This document shows, one piece after another, positions 12,325 to 23,634 of a DNA stretch of 27,514 nt; the stretch's first letter is position 1; each line of letters begins with the position of its first letter. The DNA is taken from positions 1 through 27,514 of the IMG/VR virus record IMGVR_UViG_3300028610_001325; one strand, given 5' to 3'. The stretch comes from a virus. Under the pieces are notes generated by a model. That model was not told the origin of the DNA. It did no database searches and was given only the letters and a program-made list of their open reading frames with translations. The position numbers and the translations under genes were made by a program.

Positions 12325-15300
12325 ATGAGCACATCATTTGATGCTTTAATGCGCTCTCTGCAGCAAACACAGCAGAGTTTTGGTGAAGCCAGGCAGCGCC
12401 GTGTAGAAGACAGTGCTGAACGTAAACGTACTACTATTGATCCTAACTTTGAATCATTTGATCCAGATCTGTATGATGTTACAGATGCGGATACATTGAG
12501 ACATCGTCGTACGGGCGAAGAAATTCGTATTCAAGGTCCAAAAGGTGAATCACTTGATTCTTTTGAGACACAAGAAAGCACATACTTAAATAACCCACGA
12601 CGAGCGGAATTTCACAAGCGTGCTTATGCCCAAGCCTTTGGTGTAAAACGCGAAGATGTAACAATAAAAGATCTCACTGAATTGGGTGAAATACAAAAAG
12701 AACGTTTGAATAATAGCCTAGAGACTTTACGCGGTGTAGGCCTAAATCGAACAGGTCAAGATCAATTCGGACGTACTCTTGCCACATTGGATGATTTTGG
12801 ACCACTTGAAGATGCTAAACGTTTGGGTGGTAATGCTAGCTTTTTTGCACCAAGTAATTTTGCTGGACAATTAAGATCCATTGCTTCTGGTGAATTTGGT
12901 GAAACAATTGCTCCTCAAGAACGTTCCCTTAAACGTGCTTTGTTGGGTGATCAAGCTGTTAATTTAATAGCTGGCGCTAGTCGTATGGCTAATAGTTTGC
13001 TACAAGCTGGATCCGTACTTACAGGTACCAATACAGAAGCTGTAACCAATTTCTTTAATGCAAATAAAGAACGTATTCAAGGTTTCAAAGAAGCGTTATC
13101 TAGTGAAGATCAACTATTCCGCGAACGAATGGATGCTAGACGATCGTCTTTGAATCCAGAACTATTTGAATTACGTAAACAGAAAGCTATTGATGCTGGT
13201 AAATCTGAAAAACAAGCTGCTATATCTGCTGGTATTGATGAATTTACAGATCGAATAGGGTTCCTTATTGATAACCCTGGTCGAATTTTAGACGCGACCA
13301 TCGAATCACTGCCTTATATGATAGGTGTAGGTGCAGTTGGTCGTGTTGCAATAAATGCAGCAGTCAAACGTATAGGCGAAAATATATTAAAGCGTACAAC
13401 AGCTAAATCTGTTGCAACAGGTGTTGCAGAAGCACCTGAAATACTTGCTGCACAAGCTGCTAATATTACTAACCGCTTTCTAGGCAGTAAAACTGGTCAA
13501 CAAACATTAAACAGAATTGCAACCAATACAGGTACAACAACTGTTGGTTTAACAGAGGGTTTATCTAGCTCTGCTGATGTTTACGACTCTATTGCTAATA
13601 TGACTGAGGAAGAAGCTTCTCAATCAGAAGAATATCAAGCACTCCGTAAACTGGGTTTAGATCATAAGGAAGCCACTCGCCAACTTGCAGAAACGGCATT
13701 TATGGATACCTTGGCTACAGTTACATTAATGGCTGGCGCTGCCGGCCGCCTTACAGGTGCTGCCGCGTTTGAAAGCAAGTTGTTTACTGGATTGGCCAGT
13801 GCCCGTAAAGGAGCTAAAACGATTGTACAACAAGTTGACGATGTAGGGGCAGCTGCTACAGCTGTCAAAGCTACTGCTGCTACTGCAGTTCCTCAAAAAA
13901 CAAAAGTTTTACGTACTGCGGCTAAAGCTGTTGCCACCCCACTGGTAAGAGGTGTTAAACATATTTCAGGGCCCGGTGCTAGAGAAGCTGTAGAAGAAAC
14001 TATTCAATCTGGCGGTGGAGAGTTTTTATCACAGTTAGCATCATTTGATGCTACTGGCGAACCTATTGGGCCTGGTGTTGGTGCTGCTACAGCTGAAGGT
14101 GCTGTTGTAGGTTTTGCATCAGGTGCTGGTGCCAGTGCAGTTACAGATTCTTTGAAAGCAATTGCAAATGCAGCTACAAAACCTCGTAGTAATTCTTCCG
14201 GTTTGAAAGAACGTAATAAAGTTGCTCAATCAATCGCTGAAGCTGGCACTATTGTTCCTGGTGGATCCATTTCTGATATTAATAATACACAACCTGCACC
14301 TGATACAGATTTTAAGAAATCTTATAACGATATAATTGTAGGTATACAGGAAGAAACTATTCAACCTTTGGAAGCCATTAATAGATTAGTTTTATTCCAT
14401 GATTTACATATTGCACAGGGTAATACATTTACTCCTGAAGAAGAACAATTACACAAAAAATTACTAGGTATTTATAAAGAAGAACTTGCCAATCGAATGA
14501 ATGACATTCGTAAAACACCTGAATCAAAATGGACAGACTTAGATCGTGCAGTAATTAATGCAGCTGGTGTATTAGGTATAAAAAAGAAAGCAGATATTGA
14601 AGAGTTACCTGAATCTGGTGTTGAAGCCCTCGAGATTTCTGCTGAAATTAATGCACTTGAAAAAGAATCCGAACAACAATTGGCTGAACAAGTAACGAAT
14701 GCTAATACAGATACTGTACGACAGCGTGCTATTGATGTACATAATGAAAAGTTTTCTGATGCAATAGGTAGTAAGGGCCCTGGTCTTGCGTGGTACAGAC
14801 GTGAGATGGTAAATACAATGACAGACCCTGATATAGATAGTCGCGATGGTAAATTCCTTGCTTTATCTAAAGATTTAACCAATTTTATTGATACACAAGT
14901 TAAAAAATTACAATCTAATATAAATAAGAAAAGTTCTCCTGTTTTTATAGAACAATTGCAGAAAGAACTTCAAATTATGAGTGATACTCATAAAGCATTG
15001 AAAAAACAGTTTTTGGTTTGGAATCCCAACGCAACTTCTGAGATTGTAGAATCTGCTAAAAAAGATGATTTTGTACCTATAGATGTATCAGATATACCTA
15101 TTCCTACTGATGTTACACCCAGTACTGTATCAATTCCCAGTAAAACACCTGTTAAAGCTGCTGAGAAGCCCCCAGTTGCCTCCAGTTCTATTAAGTCTGA
15201 AAAGATACCTAAGATTGCAGTAAAGGAACCTGTAAGGGCTCCTGAGCCATCTGAGAAGCAAAAAGATACACGTACTGTTGATGAATTACGATCTCGTGCA

Positions 15301-18300
15301 AAAGAATTGGGATTAACGGGTTATTCTGCACTTAGACGCACAGAACTCTTGCAATCAGTCGTTACTGCAGAAGCTAAATCATTAGACAGTAGAGAAGATG
15401 CTGCCGAAGTTAAAGACGACGCTGTGGCGGAGCCTATAGCGGCGTCTGAGACTGCTGATGTAGTTGAAATTGCTGATACTACCATTAAAGAAACAAAACC
15501 TGCAGTTATACAAACTACAGAAGAAAAAATTAGTAATAGATTAGCTGCTACTAAAAGCTTGTTACGTCGTATTAAAGATCCAGACTTTTTAATTGCAGAA
15601 CTAAAATTATCCAATAAATCTGATAATAAATTTTTACAAGATCAAATTGAGTCTGGTGTATCTGCTAAAGAAGCTATTAATGCAATTGTGAACCGTATTG
15701 AACCGGACCCAACAAAGCGTAATATTTCTTTTAAATCAACTATTGATAAAGAAGTACTTGATAATGCTATTCAAATAATTGGTTTATTAAATGCTGAAAA
15801 AAGTGTACCTGCAATTGGTATTTCAGATCATTGGAATAATTTTGTTGAAAATACTAAAGATAGCTGGCAATGGCTTAAAGGTGAATGGATTTGGGGCACC
15901 CAAAAACCCCTTGAAACAGATGAACATTTTAAGCAAATTGCTATTGAAGCTGAAAAGAAGTTTGCGGCAGCCAAACTGCCAACTAGCATAGCTGATGCAT
16001 TTGCACGTAAATCACAAGTTAGTAATACACTATTTGGCGCCATACCTAATTTAATGGATGTACTTAATGATTTAGGTGCAAAAAATAAGTTATTACAAAC
16101 ACTTCAAGTAAAACCAGCTGAAGAAGTTGCATTAAATGCATTTATTAGCTATTACAATCAATTTAAAAAGACTTTAGAGGATAATTATCGTGAATTAGAT
16201 ATTAAAAAGAGCTTTGCAGATATAACATTGCAAGAACATGGTATACATTACTTTGAAAATAAACTTGGAGAAATAGACCCTAATGTAATTGCTGCTATGG
16301 CTTTTGAAGCTATGAATTGGGCTACACATTCTGGTGCACAAACAGCCTGGAATGATCAAGAAGCAATTAATAGTATATTAGGTCGTGATGGTGATACTTT
16401 AATTACAAATAAAGAAGCAGAAATATTACGTACAGCCGGCACAGTACGTAATAATGCAGCCAATGAAATTGGCCAAGCAATTTGGAAGCACCTTAATTTA
16501 GAAAAAATAGTGAATACAGATATTAATTCACTATTTATGGATAAACTTATTGCCACTCTAGGTGGTACAGCTTTATCTGTATTGGCTAATCAAAATAGAA
16601 TAGAACTTACTACAGTTGATCGTAAATGGTTTCAAAAAGCACGAGAACAAAATCCAGATAATCATACAACTGTAATAGAAGGACAAAATACTAAAGATAA
16701 ACGTGTAAATTTTGTACGTAATGCTCAAATTTTGATTGATGTAGAACAAGGACAAGTTTGGAAAGATGAAAATAATAGTTTAATTGTAGCTGTACGCGAA
16801 GGCCAAAGTATGTTTACACGTTTGTTTGGTTCTGATCCTAAAGTACGTATACCTAGTTTTACTAAGCCGACAAAAGTACCTAATACAATTAGCCGTTCAG
16901 TTGCAAATATTAGTTCAAAAATGAAAGAACGTGTATTAAATATGTCTCAACGAGCATGGCAAGTTGACACATCAGTTATGTCAGTTTTGGCTCGAATGGA
17001 TCAACGTTCATACCTTAAGATGGCACATAAATATGTAGATGAATCAGAAATTGACAGTAAACATGTTACACAACGTGAAGGTACAAGGGGACGTAATGCA
17101 GGACTAGATAGGGATTTTTCTAGTGCAAGGGAGTGGAACGAACAGTATGGAAGCAGACCGTTCTACTTCGATTATAAGATGATTCGTAATGGTCGAATAC
17201 ATATTAATAGTAATGTAATAAATCCACAAGCAAATAAATTGCATAGATTTATGTTTGGTATGAAACAGTGGGAAGTATCAGTACCTGTGAATCCCAATAC
17301 AGATGCTGGTAAAAAAATTGTAGAAGACATGAAGATTGCAATTGCTTTGGGTTTTGATATTAATGCTGATAAAAAACTTAGACATGATGTATTAGCAGAA
17401 ATTGAAGTTGTACTGCAATCTTTAGAGATGAAAGATGCATTAGATGTTTTAAATAAAGATGGTACAGATCAATACAATGAAGATGATATGGCAGCTTTTG
17501 CAAAGTTTTTGCAACCATCAAAAGGTAAACCAGGTGGTGAAGGAACACATACTTTAGCTGCACTTGTTGCGTGGAATACTTACAATAATGCTACAGAAGG
17601 CCATGTTACAATCAGTTTACCGATGGAAACTGATGGAATTACAAATGGTTTTATCGCCGGTTTATTACAAACTCCAACTAATGTAATTCAAAAATCTTAC
17701 AAAAATTTACTTCGTGCAGGTGGTTATTTCTTCAAAGGTGATCCTTGGAAGAGTTTTCCAGAATTTATAGCCGATGGTGGCCGAGACAATTATCAACAGG
17801 TAGCTGATTCAACAGCTAAATTTTTACGAAAAATGTCTAAAGGTATTCTTAATGTTTCACCCAAGAAACCTGTAGATTTCAGAGATAATGATATACGAAT
17901 TAATTCTAGTAAAATTGTTGGTAGCGGGTTATTACCTGATATAACTGAATTATCATTAAAGAAAGGTCGTGATTGGGCTAAAAATCCCTTAATGGTAGTA
18001 GCATATGGTGCTTCTGTTGCTTCTGTAATAAGAGCTATTACTGAGGCAGCTTTTGAAGATTTTCACACAAATTTAGCTGAGGCTGTACAATCTGATAATC
18101 CATTAGAAGCAATTACTGCCGCGGTAAATGCCGGGCATGACATAGCTAATGTGGTACTTGCTGCTAATCGTAAATCTGAAATTTCAAAAGATAAAGGACC
18201 ACTTAATAAAAAAGGACAACCCATAACTTTTAGCGTTACAACTGATAATGTTCTCACATTAGCTAATCGCAAAGAGTATGGTGGAGACTTAAATAAATTT

Positions 18301-21300
18301 GCTACTAATTTTACTTTATCAGGTGAAATTTTAACTTTATTTAATTTAGGTATTGAAAAGACTTATGGAGCAGCCTTAGGTGCAGCTTTAGAAGCTAAAT
18401 TGGCACCAATACAAGAAATAAGAACACAATTAAATCATGCAAATAAATTGATGAATATTATTTTTGTGCAGGATTTTACACGTAGAGTAGATACATTACA
18501 AAAATCAAGAGGAATAATTTTAGGTCCAGATGATAGACGTGTTATATACGCAGATATGCACAATGAAGGTTTGCTTCCTTCAGTAGCAACTGCATTTTCA
18601 GAAAAATTTAGTGAAAATTTAGAAACTACTAATTTTCAAACAGAATATATTCCAGGTAAAGATGGTATAGGTGAAGCTAAATTTAATAGTACACTTGATA
18701 TTATTGATCGTGCATTTGCAGGTGAAGAAGGTAAAGCTGTAACACCTAAAGGTCAAGCTGCTATTTTTACACGCATTATCTCTAATATGCCAAATACCGA
18801 TGTTGGTGTTTCTGGTGTTGTAAAACTTATTCATGCTTTGGATGGTGTAAATAATTCTGAAGCTTGGGGAAATAATCCTGTACTCAATGTACATGATGCA
18901 CAAGTAAGTAAATTTACAGATGCAGATAAAATTGCAGGTGATACAAATGCAGATTTTATAAGTATGCATGCTGGATATAGTCTTGGTGATGCAATTTTAG
19001 AATCTACTGGTCGTATGATGTCATTACTACTTGCAGAAACTGATTCAAGACTTAGTCCACAATTTAAACAAAAAATATATAATGATTTTATTGATCATTT
19101 AGTTGAATTTAAACATTATACAAAAAAAGATTTAAAAGAATTTGATACACAGTCATTAACAGAACAATGGTTTGCAAATTTACAAAATGAAATATTACAA
19201 TCCAATGAAGGGCGTAAAATACTGTTCGAAGATGGTAGTTTTATTAATCAATTTGCTAAAGAAGGGTCTGAACGATCTAATCCAGAAGGCGGACCTGAAT
19301 TGGCTCAAGCTGATGAAACATTAGCGCAATTAAATACTCTTTCTGTAAATGAAGTACTTCGTAATTTCCGCGGAGAATTACTTGAAGGTAAACAGATAGA
19401 ACAAGATAAACAGCAAATTATTGCAGATATACAAGAAAAAGTGATTTCACAAGAGAACCCACTTAATATTGTACGTACTTGGATTAATCACACAGCTCCA
19501 TCAGCTGAACGTTTAATTGATGTTTTACAAGCTGCATATACAGACACACCTGCAGGTAATACATTAAGAGTATTGTTTAATATTCTTAAACCTCATTTAA
19601 ATGGTGTAAAGGTTGTAAGTCAATCTATTCCAGGAGAAAAAGAAGAGGGTAAAAGCGCTAAAGGTAAATATTTTTTAAGAAGTCGCACAATAGTATTTAA
19701 TGAAGGCGTAACTGATCCTAATATAGCTTCGACAGCATTTCATGAAGCTATACACGCTGCTAATGTAAATAGATTAGAAGAATTAGAGGAACAGAATCCA
19801 GATGAATTTGAAATACTATATAACAAAGCAATTAATTGGGCTACAAATTTACGTAAAGATAAAGACGCTGATAATGTTAAATATAGGTTAGCTACTCAAA
19901 TATTACGTTATAAACGTAATCAACCAAAAGCTAGTCCAGTTAGTGCTGTATCTGAATATCTTGCATATGCTTTAACTACTCCAAGTCTTGCAGAAGATTT
20001 TACAATATATAGTGATAATGTTGTTGAACTACTTGGGGATTTGTTTAGTTCTTTACAGGATCCCTCCACTGGTGCTGTGAAGTTGCATTCTACTGGTGAA
20101 TCAGTAGATAGAACATTATTTGAAAATAAGTTTGAAACACTTGAAGCTGATAAAATGCAACAGATATTTGATCAGTTATCTAAACATGACCAGGGCCCAG
20201 TAGATTTAGGTCATCAACAAACTTTAAATACATTACTCAATAATTTCATTATTCCTGGTATTGAATCCATAGAAGATGTCATTCAACAGGAAATTGCAAA
20301 GGATCCATATGCAACAGAGCACATAGGTGAAATAGAGGGCGGTATTATTCGTTTACAAGCTGCTGGTAATGTATTGTCATCTAATGTTGACATGTCAATG
20401 CAAGAAACAGCCTTACATGAGTATACACATGCTATTCTTAGATCCGCAATAGATGGTAATCATTTTGTACAGAAAGAAGCACGTAGATTATATGAGTTAG
20501 CTAAAGAAGGTATTACACCAGACGACTTTTTACCTGAGAAAATATCTGGAAGTTCTATTATAGCTCGTGAAAAAGCGCAAGCTCGATATGACCATATTTT
20601 TGATAATCCAAATGGTGTGCAATATCATGAGTTCATGGCAATTGCATTAACTAATCAGGCTTTTGCCACCGCTCTCTCTAATCTTGATAACAAGGATGTT
20701 GTGGTAAGGATACCAAATTGGAGCGGTGGCATTTTAAATCAAATGCTGGAATTAATGCGTACAGCTATTCAATGGCTTTCTGGACAGTCTTTACGTACAA
20801 ACAAAGGTAGTATACACCAAGGTGTCTTTAGTTTAGCTAAAGCAACTGTTGCTATTAATCAGCGAAATATGCAACGTACTCAAGACCTAGCAAATGGCCA
20901 AGATCAAACAAGTAAGTTAAATCGTGTCAATGATAGGGTTACAGGTATTATCAATAATAGGATAATAAGTCCCCTTCAAGCTGGTTTTGCTGCTAGTGAT
21001 AAAAAGCGTTTAGATCCAAAGAACCCAAACATAGCTGGATTCATTAGGTCCACGACACACGTAGCACTTGCCAGTAAAAACTCTGAAGTACGTAAAGCAT
21101 ATAGTGAAGTATATCGATCAATGGGTGGTGCAAAAGATAACCTGTTATTTGATCTTATCCAGGAAGTTAGTCCATGGAATCAAGAAAACATAGGTACTGA
21201 TGCAGCTCCTGGCTGGATTGATTTATTACGCAAATCTAAAGTAATAGTTGATATGGCTAGACAAAATATTACTGAACATACCCGTTCTTTTATAGACAAA

Positions 21301-23634
21301 TCATTTGATAAAAATAATCATCTTACTGATGCACATAAAGAAAGTATTACTCGAGTTATGATGAAAACTGATATTACTTCTTTAATGGAAAATGACAGAC
21401 TGACTGTAGGTGGATTACAGGATTTATTAAATGATCCAAGTAAAATTGTAGCTTTACAGGCTACAATTGAAGCTGAATTGAGAACAGAATTAAGTACACA
21501 AAATGCTACTAATTTGTTTAATGTTTTTATAAATCAAGCAAACTCACTAGCTAGTATTATGGTGGATGGTATTGCTTCAGTTGAAAATCCATTATTAAAT
21601 GCCGGTAACATAGTTAAGCAATTTAATTTAAGTATAAGAGATCGTGTATCACTTAATAACGTAGATAAATTAACAGAACTTGTTGATAAAATTACTACTT
21701 TAATTGCACTTAAAAGAACACCCAGTAATGATATAAATCTTGCATTAGATATGATTAACCATGAAATGGGTCGCACTGATGTAGCTAATGATAATGGTTT
21801 TAGTCGATTGCTTGGTATGCAAGTTAATTTTAAGAAATTAGCCCAAGAAAGATTATTTGAAAATAGTCCTGTACAAATGATTAAAGGTTATGTTTATGAA
21901 ATTTTTGATGGTGATATTAATATAGAAATTATTGATGATACGCCTGAAGAACGTGTACGAATGATTAATGAAAATTTAATTGAAGTTGGACCTGTAGCCA
22001 GAGATAATTTAGACCCTAATAAACGACGTAGAGTTTTATACAGAGGACTTAAGGGTCTTGCTGGATACAATAAGAGTATTGTTTCACTTACAGATATGCA
22101 ACATCGTGGTGCCAATTTGTTTTCTGCAGTACAATTTAGTACACAAACAGCTTTAAAAAATCTTGGACAAGTTAAAAATGATTCTTTTCGTAGCGCTCGT
22201 AACCAGTTCCAACAAAATTATGTAAAACCTGGTGCCAATATGGTGCCTGTATTAGATGATCAAGGTAATATTGTTGATTATCGTTATATGATGAGTGAAG
22301 CTAATAAACAAAAAATATTAAAGAAAAAAGATCCATTTGATAAAGTTTTACCGCGCATGTTTGCTTCTATAACAGATAGAAACAATACAAAAGAAATAAA
22401 TCGTGATGTTGCTGATTTACTTTGGAAAGAGTGGGATAAACTTGGTCCTTCCGGTGATATTGAAGTAACAAAGGGAGTTGTTATACAAGGTGAGCATAGA
22501 TTTTTAGAAATCAGCAAACATAGTAATAATGCTGAAGCTAGAGATATGTGGAATTTATTACCTGTTGATATGCAGCTAGAATTGCAAGCACGATTTGGAA
22601 CAGAAGTTTTTTATGTTAGAGATGATGTGGCCAATCTTGTATTAGGTTTTCGTAAAGTAAGCATGTCTAATAATAAAATGCTTGGTCGTGCAGCACCTAT
22701 AGTAAAAATGGCTGAAAAATATTGGCAAGAGATTGTTCAATTAATGCGTATTAAAATTGCTGTATTAACACCAGCTGTTGTAGTAGGCAATGCTGCATCT
22801 AATACTGCAATATTACTATCAGAAGGTATTAAACCTTCATATATACGACGTAAAGGTTCTGAAGCTATTTCTGCTATGCGTCAATTCCAAAAGGACATAC
22901 GTGCACGAGATGAGCTGTTAATACAAATTGGTGCAGATGAAGCATTAGGTAAAAATGTACGAAGTAAAATTAATGAGTTGACCAGGCTGGAAGCAGGTAT
23001 TAATACAAATCCAGTGGGTCGATTGGTTAATGAAGGTTTATTTACCAGTATTGCTGAAGATTTAGGGGCTGACGATGATAGTCTCAGAGGACACTTGATA
23101 AACAAAGCAGTTGACAAAGCCAAGGGAATTATCCCTGACATTATTGTGGAAGGAGCAAAAGAATGGTACATGCTCCCTGGTACAAGAGGATATAAAGCTG
23201 CTGTGGCTGCTACACAATATGGTGATTTTGTAGCTAGATTTATAAAATTTAATTATGATACAGAAGTTCGTGGAAAAGACAAAGCTACTGCTATTAAAGA
23301 ATCGTTATCTGCATTTATTTACTATGACATACCGCAGAACAAATCTTTACAGTTTCTCAATGACAATGGTTTCTTAATGTTTACTAAATTTTTCTTGAGA
23401 ATCCAACCAATTGTGGCTCGTGTATATACACAGAATCCTGTAAGTGCTTTTGGTACATTAGCTTTACAAAAAGCTTTATTGGCGGATCCATTCAATGAAA
23501 ATATAATGAATTATGGTATGGGAAGTGGATTAACACAGAAACCAACCATTAATCCTATTGGTAAGGCGTGGGATACACTTAACCCATCTGAACCAGCCCT
23601 TCTTCAATGGATTTTGAATCCATTTGGATTATAA
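12325..23634 (+). CDS. Giant virion RNA polymerase with nuclease-like and tandem zincin-like domains
   Basis: The 3,769-residue protein is of the N4 vRNAP type, a single-subunit RNA polymerase packaged and injected with the DNA to transcribe early genes. Polymerase motifs are a T/DxxGR-equivalent IRNGR ending at R1624, motif A with D1770 (ETDGITNGF), motif B R1882-K1886-Y1894 (GRDWAKNPLMVVAYG) and motif C H2190-D2191 (NVHDAQV). Their spacings are close to those I recall for N4. Residues about 50-155 look like a staphylococcal nuclease: D54/D56, R68, D78xxE81, FGR150. Gly/Ala-rich hydrophobic stretches lie near 333, 459-480 and 582-606. A Pro/Lys linker (about 915-980) and a SAP-like unit (983-1016) precede the polymerase. 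Two HExxH...E units follow (H2473/H2477/E2544 and H2698/H2702/E2769). A good ribosome binding site, AAGGAT, precedes the ATG. The polymerase call is firm; the other domains are inferred from motifs. Confidence 0.9.
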   Translation: MSTSFDALMRSLQQTQQSFGEARQRRVEDSAERKRTTIDPNFESFDPDLYDVTDADTLRHRRTGEEIRIQGPKGESLDSFETQESTYLNNPRRAEFHKRAYAQAFGVKREDVTIKDLTELGEIQKERLNNSLETLRGVGLNRTGQDQFGRTLATLDDFGPLEDAKRLGGNASFFAPSNFAGQLRSIASGEFGETIAPQERSLKRALLGDQAVNLIAGASRMANSLLQAGSVLTGTNTEAVTNFFNANKERIQGFKEALSSEDQLFRERMDARRSSLNPELFELRKQKAIDAGKSEKQAAISAGIDEFTDRIGFLIDNPGRILDATIESLPYMIGVGAVGRVAINAAVKRIGENILKRTTAKSVATGVAEAPEILAAQAANITNRFLGSKTGQQTLNRIATNTGTTTVGLTEGLSSSADVYDSIANMTEEEASQSEEYQALRKLGLDHKEATRQLAETAFMDTLATVTLMAGAAGRLTGAAAFESKLFTGLASARKGAKTIVQQVDDVGAAATAVKATAATAVPQKTKVLRTAAKAVATPLVRGVKHISGPGAREAVEETIQSGGGEFLSQLASFDATGEPIGPGVGAATAEGAVVGFASGAGASAVTDSLKAIANAATKPRSNSSGLKERNKVAQSIAEAGTIVPGGSISDINNTQPAPDTDFKKSYNDIIVGIQEETIQPLEAINRLVLFHDLHIAQGNTFTPEEEQLHKKLLGIYKEELANRMNDIRKTPESKWTDLDRAVINAAGVLGIKKKADIEELPESGVEALEISAEINALEKESEQQLAEQVTNANTDTVRQRAIDVHNEKFSDAIGSKGPGLAWYRREMVNTMTDPDIDSRDGKFLALSKDLTNFIDTQVKKLQSNINKKSSPVFIEQLQKELQIMSDTHKALKKQFLVWNPNATSEIVESAKKDDFVPIDVSDIPIPTDVTPSTVSIPSKTPVKAAEKPPVASSSIKSEKIPKIAVKEPVRAPEPSEKQKDTRTVDELRSRAKELGLTGYSALRRTELLQSVVTAEAKSLDSREDAAEVKDDAVAEPIAASETADVVEIADTTIKETKPAVIQTTEEKISNRLAATKSLLRRIKDPDFLIAELKLSNKSDNKFLQDQIESGVSAKEAINAIVNRIEPDPTKRNISFKSTIDKEVLDNAIQIIGLLNAEKSVPAIGISDHWNNFVENTKDSWQWLKGEWIWGTQKPLETDEHFKQIAIEAEKKFAAAKLPTSIADAFARKSQVSNTLFGAIPNLMDVLNDLGAKNKLLQTLQVKPAEEVALNAFISYYNQFKKTLEDNYRELDIKKSFADITLQEHGIHYFENKLGEIDPNVIAAMAFEAMNWATHSGAQTAWNDQEAINSILGRDGDTLITNKEAEILRTAGTVRNNAANEIGQAIWKHLNLEKIVNTDINSLFMDKLIATLGGTALSVLANQNRIELTTVDRKWFQKAREQNPDNHTTVIEGQNTKDKRVNFVRNAQILIDVEQGQVWKDENNSLIVAVREGQSMFTRLFGSDPKVRIPSFTKPTKVPNTISRSVANISSKMKERVLNMSQRAWQVDTSVMSVLARMDQRSYLKMAHKYVDESEIDSKHVTQREGTRGRNAGLDRDFSSAREWNEQYGSRPFYFDYKMIRNGRIHINSNVINPQANKLHRFMFGMKQWEVSVPVNPNTDAGKKIVEDMKIAIALGFDINADKKLRHDVLAEIEVVLQSLEMKDALDVLNKDGTDQYNEDDMAAFAKFLQPSKGKPGGEGTHTLAALVAWNTYNNATEGHVTISLPMETDGITNGFIAGLLQTPTNVIQKSYKNLLRAGGYFFKGDPWKSFPEFIADGGRDNYQQVADSTAKFLRKMSKGILNVSPKKPVDFRDNDIRINSSKIVGSGLLPDITELSLKKGRDWAKNPLMVVAYGASVASVIRAITEAAFEDFHTNLAEAVQSDNPLEAITAAVNAGHDIANVVLAANRKSEISKDKGPLNKKGQPITFSVTTDNVLTLANRKEYGGDLNKFATNFTLSGEILTLFNLGIEKTYGAALGAALEAKLAPIQEIRTQLNHANKLMNIIFVQDFTRRVDTLQKSRGIILGPDDRRVIYADMHNEGLLPSVATAFSEKFSENLETTNFQTEYIPGKDGIGEAKFNSTLDIIDRAFAGEEGKAVTPKGQAAIFTRIISNMPNTDVGVSGVVKLIHALDGVNNSEAWGNNPVLNVHDAQVSKFTDADKIAGDTNADFISMHAGYSLGDAILESTGRMMSLLLAETDSRLSPQFKQKIYNDFIDHLVEFKHYTKKDLKEFDTQSLTEQWFANLQNEILQSNEGRKILFEDGSFINQFAKEGSERSNPEGGPELAQADETLAQLNTLSVNEVLRNFRGELLEGKQIEQDKQQIIADIQEKVISQENPLNIVRTWINHTAPSAERLIDVLQAAYTDTPAGNTLRVLFNILKPHLNGVKVVSQSIPGEKEEGKSAKGKYFLRSRTIVFNEGVTDPNIASTAFHEAIHAANVNRLEELEEQNPDEFEILYNKAINWATNLRKDKDADNVKYRLATQILRYKRNQPKASPVSAVSEYLAYALTTPSLAEDFTIYSDNVVELLGDLFSSLQDPSTGAVKLHSTGESVDRTLFENKFETLEADKMQQIFDQLSKHDQGPVDLGHQQTLNTLLNNFIIPGIESIEDVIQQEIAKDPYATEHIGEIEGGIIRLQAAGNVLSSNVDMSMQETALHEYTHAILRSAIDGNHFVQKEARRLYELAKEGITPDDFLPEKISGSSIIAREKAQARYDHIFDNPNGVQYHEFMAIALTNQAFATALSNLDNKDVVVRIPNWSGGILNQMLELMRTAIQWLSGQSLRTNKGSIHQGVFSLAKATVAINQRNMQRTQDLANGQDQTSKLNRVNDRVTGIINNRIISPLQAGFAASDKKRLDPKNPNIAGFIRSTTHVALASKNSEVRKAYSEVYRSMGGAKDNLLFDLIQEVSPWNQENIGTDAAPGWIDLLRKSKVIVDMARQNITEHTRSFIDKSFDKNNHLTDAHKESITRVMMKTDITSLMENDRLTVGGLQDLLNDPSKIVALQATIEAELRTELSTQNATNLFNVFINQANSLASIMVDGIASVENPLLNAGNIVKQFNLSIRDRVSLNNVDKLTELVDKITTLIALKRTPSNDINLALDMINHEMGRTDVANDNGFSRLLGMQVNFKKLAQERLFENSPVQMIKGYVYEIFDGDINIEIIDDTPEERVRMINENLIEVGPVARDNLDPNKRRRVLYRGLKGLAGYNKSIVSLTDMQHRGANLFSAVQFSTQTALKNLGQVKNDSFRSARNQFQQNYVKPGANMVPVLDDQGNIVDYRYMMSEANKQKILKKKDPFDKVLPRMFASITDRNNTKEINRDVADLLWKEWDKLGPSGDIEVTKGVVIQGEHRFLEISKHSNNAEARDMWNLLPVDMQLELQARFGTEVFYVRDDVANLVLGFRKVSMSNNKMLGRAAPIVKMAEKYWQEIVQLMRIKIAVLTPAVVVGNAASNTAILLSEGIKPSYIRRKGSEAISAMRQFQKDIRARDELLIQIGADEALGKNVRSKINELTRLEAGINTNPVGRLVNEGLFTSIAEDLGADDDSLRGHLINKAVDKAKGIIPDIIVEGAKEWYMLPGTRGYKAAVAATQYGDFVARFIKFNYDTEVRGKDKATAIKESLSAFIYYDIPQNKSLQFLNDNGFLMFTKFFLRIQPIVARVYTQNPVSAFGTLALQKALLADPFNENIMNYGMGSGLTQKPTINPIGKAWDTLNPSEPALLQWILNPFGL

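What the first reader, a model, noticed from the sequence alone, without database searches (positions are those of the whole stretch)
19741..20631. Two tandem zincin-like metalloprotease units behind the polymerase
HEAIH (H2473, H2477) is followed by SEYLAYAL (E2544), and HEYTH (H2698, H2702) by HEFMAIAL (E2769). In both copies the distance from first His to third-ligand Glu is exactly 71 residues, and the copies are 225 residues apart with similar preceding strands. This points to an internal duplication of a gluzincin-type domain. A protease fused to an injected RNA polymerase could process itself, ejection proteins or host targets.
Basis: partly seen in the sequence, partly recalled or inferred. 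Interest (0 to 1): 0.85.

Follow-up and report, generated by a model that had tools for sequence, protein, structure and literature searches.

The report
Twin metalloprotease domains in phage polymerase
The giant RNA polymerase that this N4-like phage injects into bacteria carries two related zinc-protease domains side by side, and across about 180 related phages at least one of the two always keeps its complete active site while the other is often deleted or dead, which suggests that the protease activity itself is needed for infection.

Summary
In detail: the 3769-aa virion RNA polymerase (vRNAP) of an N4-like phage has HEAIH...E2544 and HEYTH...E2769, coordinates exact. Both are zincin domains by alignment, predicted fold and match to the solved N4 vRNAP. 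A zincin in N4-like vRNAPs was already published (PMC5512222; PMC12633501), so the protease itself is not new. What appears new is the two-slot architecture. Unit 2 is present in every complete vRNAP surveyed. In one large clade (N4, LIT1 and others) it has lost its metal site, and that clade always keeps an active unit 1. Elsewhere unit 1 is usually absent and unit 2 is always active. Both are active in the window and about eight others. None of about 183 sequences lacks a complete site. In N4 the decayed unit 2 (residues 2373-2592) is the start of the region published as 'C2', said to have no structural homologue. The equal 71-residue spacing is coincidence, and a local internal duplication is not shown. 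Best reading: a metallopeptidase delivered with the polymerase and needed after ejection; substrate unknown. Two relatives encode polymerase and zincin-CTD as separate genes yet keep the zincin intact, which argues against a role limited to cutting the linker between them.

The parts
12325..23634 (+). virion RNA polymerase (vRNAP) gene, 3769 aa, N4 gp50 homologue
   Evidence: ORF; PHROG 2206 'virion RNA polymerase' E 1.1e-302
18895..18897 (+). D2191 in LNVHDA, polymerase palm aspartate aligned with invariant N4 D1948; marks the polymerase that precedes the zincins
   Evidence: invariant column in 7-way alignment and D1948; its role as catalytic Asp is from knowledge of single-subunit RNAPs
19438..20091 (+). 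unit 1 zincin domain, aa about 2372-2589
   Evidence: borders taken from the 218-aa indel between Vibrio phages JA-1 and phi 1; AlphaFold2 model helices - three strands - HExxH helix - Glu helix
19741..19755 (+). unit 1 HEAIH (H2473, E2474, H2477)
   Evidence: in helix 116-139 of the model
19954..19956 (+). unit 1 third ligand E2544
   Evidence: Glu in 123 of 123 unit-1 sequences; in model helix 187-200
20125..20814 (+). unit 2 zincin domain, aa about 2601-2830
   Evidence: single-domain model pLDDT 86.5, pTM 0.85; matches N4 vRNAP 2373-2592 in 9pnr, Z 11.7, rmsd 3.9, 180 aligned
20416..20430 (+). unit 2 HEYTH (H2698, E2699, H2702)
   Evidence: conserved as a set in 64 active unit-2 sequences, lost in 117
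20629..20631 (+). unit 2 third ligand E2769
   Evidence: Glu in all 64 active, in 0 of 117 dead unit-2 sequences
20902..23631 (+). C2 region (rest of the C-terminal domain), aa 2860-3769
   Evidence: C2 profile match in relatives; PHROG 2206 covers it

Best explanation
Between polymerase and C-terminal domain, Schitoviridae vRNAPs have two slots for related zincin (gluzincin-type metallopeptidase) domains. Unit 2 is a fixed part of the C-terminal domain, inherited vertically and never deleted, even where its metal site is destroyed. Unit 1 is a removable module in front of it. At least one of the two always keeps a complete site (HExxH plus distal Glu); in the window both do. Shown here: homology, fold, ligand conservation, and the at-least-one pattern. 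Inferred: the retained site is an active peptidase carried in the virion, ejected with the polymerase, that acts in the infected cell after ejection, most likely on a protein other than the RNAP-CTD linker alone (a further site in the ejected proteins, or a host protein). Where unit 2 is dead it is expected to serve only as scaffold of the C-terminal domain.
For: Motifs exact. Unit 1 vs active unit 2 profiles: hhalign prob 98.8, P 8e-17, 169 columns; with both motifs masked still E 2.7e-4 in the same register, against 0.73-0.97 for column-permuted and about 0.02 for reversed controls. Active vs dead unit 2: prob 99.9, E 4.7e-33. Window unit 2 profile finds N4 vRNAP 2399-2594 among PDB sequences, E 4e-30, and its model fits N4 9pnr 2373-2592. 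Survey: 181 distinct sequences, 116 with dead unit 2 and unit 1 site, 57 with active unit 2 and no unit 1, the rest both; the apparent exceptions (L131, L218, L206) all have a site on inspection. All-or-nothing loss in unit 2: third Glu in 64/64 active and 0/117 dead. Tree: unit 2 death is one clade of 116; unit 1 changes at least 7-8 times outside it and 0 times inside, although the inside has more total branch length (63.9 vs 49.5); expected about 9, Poisson P about 1e-4. JA-1 and phi 1 vRNAPs, 95-97% identical, differ by one clean 218-aa in-frame indel that is unit 1. L073 and L206 encode RNAP and zincin-C2 as separate genes with the zincin intact. Same family in ejection proteins of phiKMV-like, DarB-type and other phages without a vRNAP.
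Against: No activity, zinc binding or substrate is shown. Unit 2 death is a single event on the tree, so the at-least-one rule rests mainly on retention of unit 1 in that one clade. Parsimony counts and a constant rate are rough. Recombinant N4 vRNAP showed no evidence of degradation, so there is no ready self-cleavage in vitro. Foldseek itself gave no significant PDB match (E >= 0.15); the fold match comes from VIA-align, with Z 6-7 to known zincins. A few long-linker sequences without HExxH were not checked for a decayed unit 1.
Confidence: 0.55

Rival explanations
1. The zincin cuts its own chain between polymerase and C-terminal domain after ejection, freeing the polymerase from the autoinhibition by the CTD.
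For: The zincins sit directly behind the polymerase; the N4 CTD inhibits the polymerase in vitro, and a flexible 23-residue linker joins them. Processing of polyvalent proteins by such domains was proposed in PMC5512222.
Against: In L073 and L206 polymerase and CTD are already separate genes, yet the zincin is intact. No conserved cleavage motif in the linkers. N4 vRNAP is packaged unprocessed (PMC5512222) and recombinant protein showed no degradation. The same zincins occur in ejection proteins without a polymerase.
Confidence: 0.2
2. The domains are metal-dependent but not peptidases (for example hydroxylases like the alphaKG-HExxH proteins), or bind metal only for stability.
For: The cryo-EM authors mention alphaKG-HExxH enzymes beside zincins; the HExxH domain of such an oxygenase appears among weaker fold matches, Z 4.5.
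Against: Closest solved zincin folds are peptidases (lethal factor catalytic domain Z 7.3, PPEP Z about 5.9); the Glu of HExxH, needed as general base in zincins, is invariant in 123/123 unit 1 and 64/64 active unit 2 (HExxH partly by construction in unit 1).
Confidence: 0.15
3. The tandem in the window arose by a recent local duplication of unit 2 and has no special role (redundant copy drifting).
For: Window unit 1 is divergent, and in one tree with outgroups it falls with L025 unit 1 near the base of unit 2, with weak support and long branches. Its nearest relatives include one without unit 1 (L198).
Against: Window unit 1 scores higher on the unit-1 profile (25.7 bits) than on the unit-2 profile (8.1); all four ligand and catalytic residues are kept in spite of the divergence.
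Confidence: 0.1

Closest known systems
MPTase (zincin-like metallopeptidase) domain of N4-like vRNAPs and other polyvalent proteins (Iyer et al. 2017, PMC5512222)
   Same: Same protein family, place and motif: HExxH domain C-terminal to the N4-like polymerase (N4 aa 2130-2448), 'one or more' copies, proposed to process proteins or act as effector.
   Different: The passages read do not describe two defined slots, a decayed copy in N4, or the rule that at least one site stays intact. The published domain range in N4 runs from unit 1 into the decayed unit 2.
C1 and C2 subdomains of N4 gp50 (cryo-EM, PMC12633501; PDB 9pnr, 9pnt)
   Same: C1 (2124-2375) is unit 1; window tandem model aligns collinearly with 2124-2590.
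   Different: The preprint gives C2 (2376-3500) no structural homologue; here its first 220 residues match the window's active zincin (Z 11.7; sequence profile E 4e-30).
Anthrax lethal factor catalytic and N-terminal domains; Pro-Pro endopeptidases (PPEP-1/2/3)
   Same: Closest solved zincin folds outside the vRNAPs: Z 7.3 for unit 1 and 6.6 for unit 2 to lethal factor, about 5.5-5.9 to PPEPs. Lethal factor too pairs an inactive with an active zincin-like domain and enters cells through a pore (own knowledge).
   Different: No sequence match; identity 10-16%; different context and targets. A resemblance of fold, not a shared function.
Ejection ('internal virion') proteins of phiKMV-like phages and DarB-like proteins (phikF77, DoCa4, YIMV22061, Parlo)
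   Same: Carry a zincin that matches the unit-1 profile at 65-89 bits with HExxH and the distal Glu.
   Different: No vRNAP polymerase in the protein; single copy in the stretches read.

Membership tests
Schitoviridae (N4-like) virion RNA polymerase | Giant chain with N4-type polymerase core and C-terminal domain, in the N4 order of virion genes | tested here: met
   PHROG 2206 over aa 857-3732; portal, tape-measure-annotated and major head genes upstream
Zincin superfamily, gluzincin type | HExxH on one helix and a distal Glu on a later helix | tested here: met
   both copies
Zincin superfamily, gluzincin type | Zincin fold with three-stranded sheet before the active-site helix | tested here: met
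   Predicted order of elements and alignment to solved zincins, Z 6-7; the fold match is moderate
Zincin superfamily, gluzincin type | Ligands converge on one zinc ion | not testable with these tools
Zincin superfamily, gluzincin type | Peptidase activity | not testable with these tools
   No experiment reported in the papers read
Lethal factor / PPEP family | Sequence membership | tested here: inconclusive
   No sequence match to PDB chains other than N4 vRNAP with the unit-2 profile; fold resemblance only
Internal tandem duplication | The two units are each other's closest relatives | tested here: inconclusive
   Unit 2 is one clade (98%), window unit 1 has a long branch and unstable place; window unit 1 prefers the unit-1 profile

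The most novel reading that the evidence does not exclude
Every Schitoviridae phage depends on an injected metallopeptidase activity that can be housed in either of two zincin slots behind the polymerase, so that one slot is free to decay into a scaffold; the activity has a target other than the polymerase-CTD linker and is shared with ejection proteins of unrelated phages.
Probability: 0.4. Interest if true: 0.78.

Novelty: new variant of a known kind. Interest (0 to 1): 0.55.

Why it matters
The role of the huge C-terminal domain of the N4 polymerase, and of its HExxH motif, is an open question in the 2025 structural work. The two-slot pattern says which residues to remove in which phage, predicts that removing the single intact site in N4 should matter, and explains the start of the 'new fold' C2 as a decayed zincin. 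The phages with both sites, with one, and with the polymerase and C-terminal domain as separate genes are natural variants for testing what the protease does.

Tried and rejected
Tandem 71-residue spacing as evidence for duplication: rejected, the spacing varies widely. Unit 1 by tblastn in the phage collection: no match with the window's sequence, nor by single-protein scans of IMG/VR; profiles were needed. Pfam and NCBIfam: no family at threshold for either unit or for the N4 counterparts. Foldseek against PDB: nothing significant; the large N4 chain came up only in the VIA second look. A conserved cleavage motif in the polymerase-zincin linker: none seen, only a mild proline excess in the unit-1 group (0.056 vs 0.037). 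Apparent exceptions to the at-least-one rule: L131 (gene split over ORFs, unit 1 in the upstream ORF), L218 and L206 (active unit 2 missed by the first filter). L077/L184 stop between polymerase and CTD: same-species contigs read Tyr there, so not counted as a split gene. Second HExxH motifs in L033, L046, L048, L099 and the upstream ones in L042, L044, L083 and D497 do not match the unit profiles well and were not counted as unit 1.

Full report
WHAT IS THERE. The window is an IMG/VR virus contig of 27514 bases with the virion gene order of an N4-like phage. One ORF, 12325-23634, encodes a 3769-aa vRNAP. Its only two HExxH motifs are HEAIH (aa 2473) and HEYTH (aa 2698), each followed 71 residues later by a Glu in a similar sequence (E2544, E2769).

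ARE THEY DOMAINS, AND RELATED? I collected 22 phage records and about 200 loci from IMG/VR and bacterial genomes. Profiles of unit 1 and of unit 2 with intact sites align over 169 columns (hhalign probability 98.8, P 8e-17). With both metal motifs masked they still align in the same register (E 2.7e-4; permuted controls 0.73-0.97, reversed about 0.02). AlphaFold2 of the tandem (pLDDT 79.7, pTM 0.56) shows in both halves helices, three strands, the HExxH helix and later a helix with the Glu; unit 2 alone gives pLDDT 86.5 and pTM 0.85. Closest solved structures are N4 vRNAP and then the lethal factor and Pro-Pro endopeptidase zincins. Foldseek gave no significant match. I could not measure ligand distances in the models.

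THE TWO-SLOT PATTERN. Among 181 distinct sequences with unit 2 and the following C2 region, 64 have all four unit-2 residues and 117 have lost the site. Loss is not gradual: the third Glu is present in 64/64 and 0/117. Of the 117, 116 show a unit-1 HExxH upstream, and the last (L131) is a gene split over ORFs with unit 1 in the upstream ORF. The unit-1 distal Glu, not used for selection, is Glu in 123/123. Of the 64 active, most lack unit 1, and in many the distance from polymerase to unit 2 is shorter by a whole domain (about 190-240 against 440-560 residues). Both sites are intact in the window, PG11, L025, L038, L089 (phi 1), L097, L213, L098 and L072, the last by inspection. Two sequences missed by the filter, L218 and L206, have an active unit 2. 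No sequence lacks both.

HOW INDEPENDENT IS IT? On a tree of the C2 region, loss of the unit-2 site is one event, a clade of 116 rows with N4 and LIT1 (support 96; 43 rows). Unit 1 presence changes at least 7-8 times outside and never inside that clade, which holds more branch length (63.9 against 49.5); about 9 changes would be expected, Poisson P about 1e-4. This is rough: FastTree, minimum counts, constant rate. Vibrio phages JA-1 and phi 1 give a natural experiment: vRNAPs 95.5-97.5% identical that differ by one clean 218-aa in-frame indel, which is unit 1.

THE HIDDEN COPY IN N4. N4 unit 1 is HELVH at 2228 with E2310. At the unit-2 place N4 has FQMVT (2456) and no Glu. The unit-2 profile finds N4 2399-2594 in PDB sequences at E 4e-30, and the window's unit-2 model fits 9pnr 2373-2592 with Z 11.7, rmsd 3.9 over 180 residues. 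The preprint assigns residues 2376-3500 to C2 and reports no structural homologue. I found no description of a decayed zincin there in the papers I read.

ORIGIN. Unit 2 sequences form one clade (98%). Unit 1 sequences lie outside it and mix, with weak support, with zincins from ejection proteins of unrelated phages. An old duplication with repeated loss of unit 1, and repeated capture of unit 1 from such proteins, both fit. The window's unit 1 is divergent and its place uncertain.

HOW IT PROBABLY WORKS. Shown: homology, fold prediction, conservation, the pattern. Inferred: the retained site is a working peptidase. N4 vRNAP is packaged unprocessed (PMC5512222) and recombinant protein showed no degradation, so activity before ejection or spontaneous self-cleavage is unlikely; action after ejection is the natural alternative. 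Cutting the polymerase from its inhibitory CTD is attractive, but L073 and L206 encode polymerase and zincin-C2 as two adjacent genes, each with a start codon behind a Shine-Dalgarno-like GGAG, and keep the zincin intact, and the same zincins occur in ejection proteins without a polymerase. I therefore favour another target, in the ejected proteins or the host, with the substrate unknown.

NOVELTY AND VERDICT. A zincin in N4-like vRNAPs is known, and more than one copy per protein is known for polyvalent proteins. The two defined slots, the decayed copy in N4, the at-least-one rule and the split-gene relatives appear to be new, within the limits of an open-access library. New variant of a known kind.

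Noticed in passing
L073 4052-11539 and 11523-15566; L206 8114-12748 and 12748-17079: Polymerase and zincin-C2 are encoded as two adjacent, slightly overlapping genes instead of one giant vRNAP, with GGAG-like sites before the second start; two vRNAP loci, both with an intact zincin.
   Followed up: partly
L025 aa 1282, L029 aa 1565 (vRNAP ORFs): Extra unit-1-type zincins upstream of the polymerase (41.9 and 84.1 bits on the unit-1 profile); L025 then has three zincins.
   Followed up: partly
L241, L242, L243, L244, L245, L246: Unit-1-type zincins in ejection or DarB-like proteins of phages with no vRNAP in that protein.
   Followed up: partly
window 15274-15378 (aa 984-1018): Weak Rho_N / SAP-like match (E 1.2e-4, below Pfam cut-off) in the linker between N-terminal domain and polymerase; possible nucleic-acid-binding motif.
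   Followed up: no
L024: IMG/VR contig from another metagenome with best segment 100% identical to window vRNAP aa 1-2332; it ends before the zincins.
   Followed up: no
L131 (Shigella phage pSb-1-sized record), L077/L184: vRNAP broken into several ORFs in L131; a stop between polymerase and CTD in L077/L184 where near-identical contigs read Tyr. Possibly sequencing errors.
   Followed up: partly
L038, L046, L048, L071, L079: Giant vRNAPs of 4600-5000 aa with 900-1300 residues inserted between polymerase and unit 2, content not examined.
   Followed up: no
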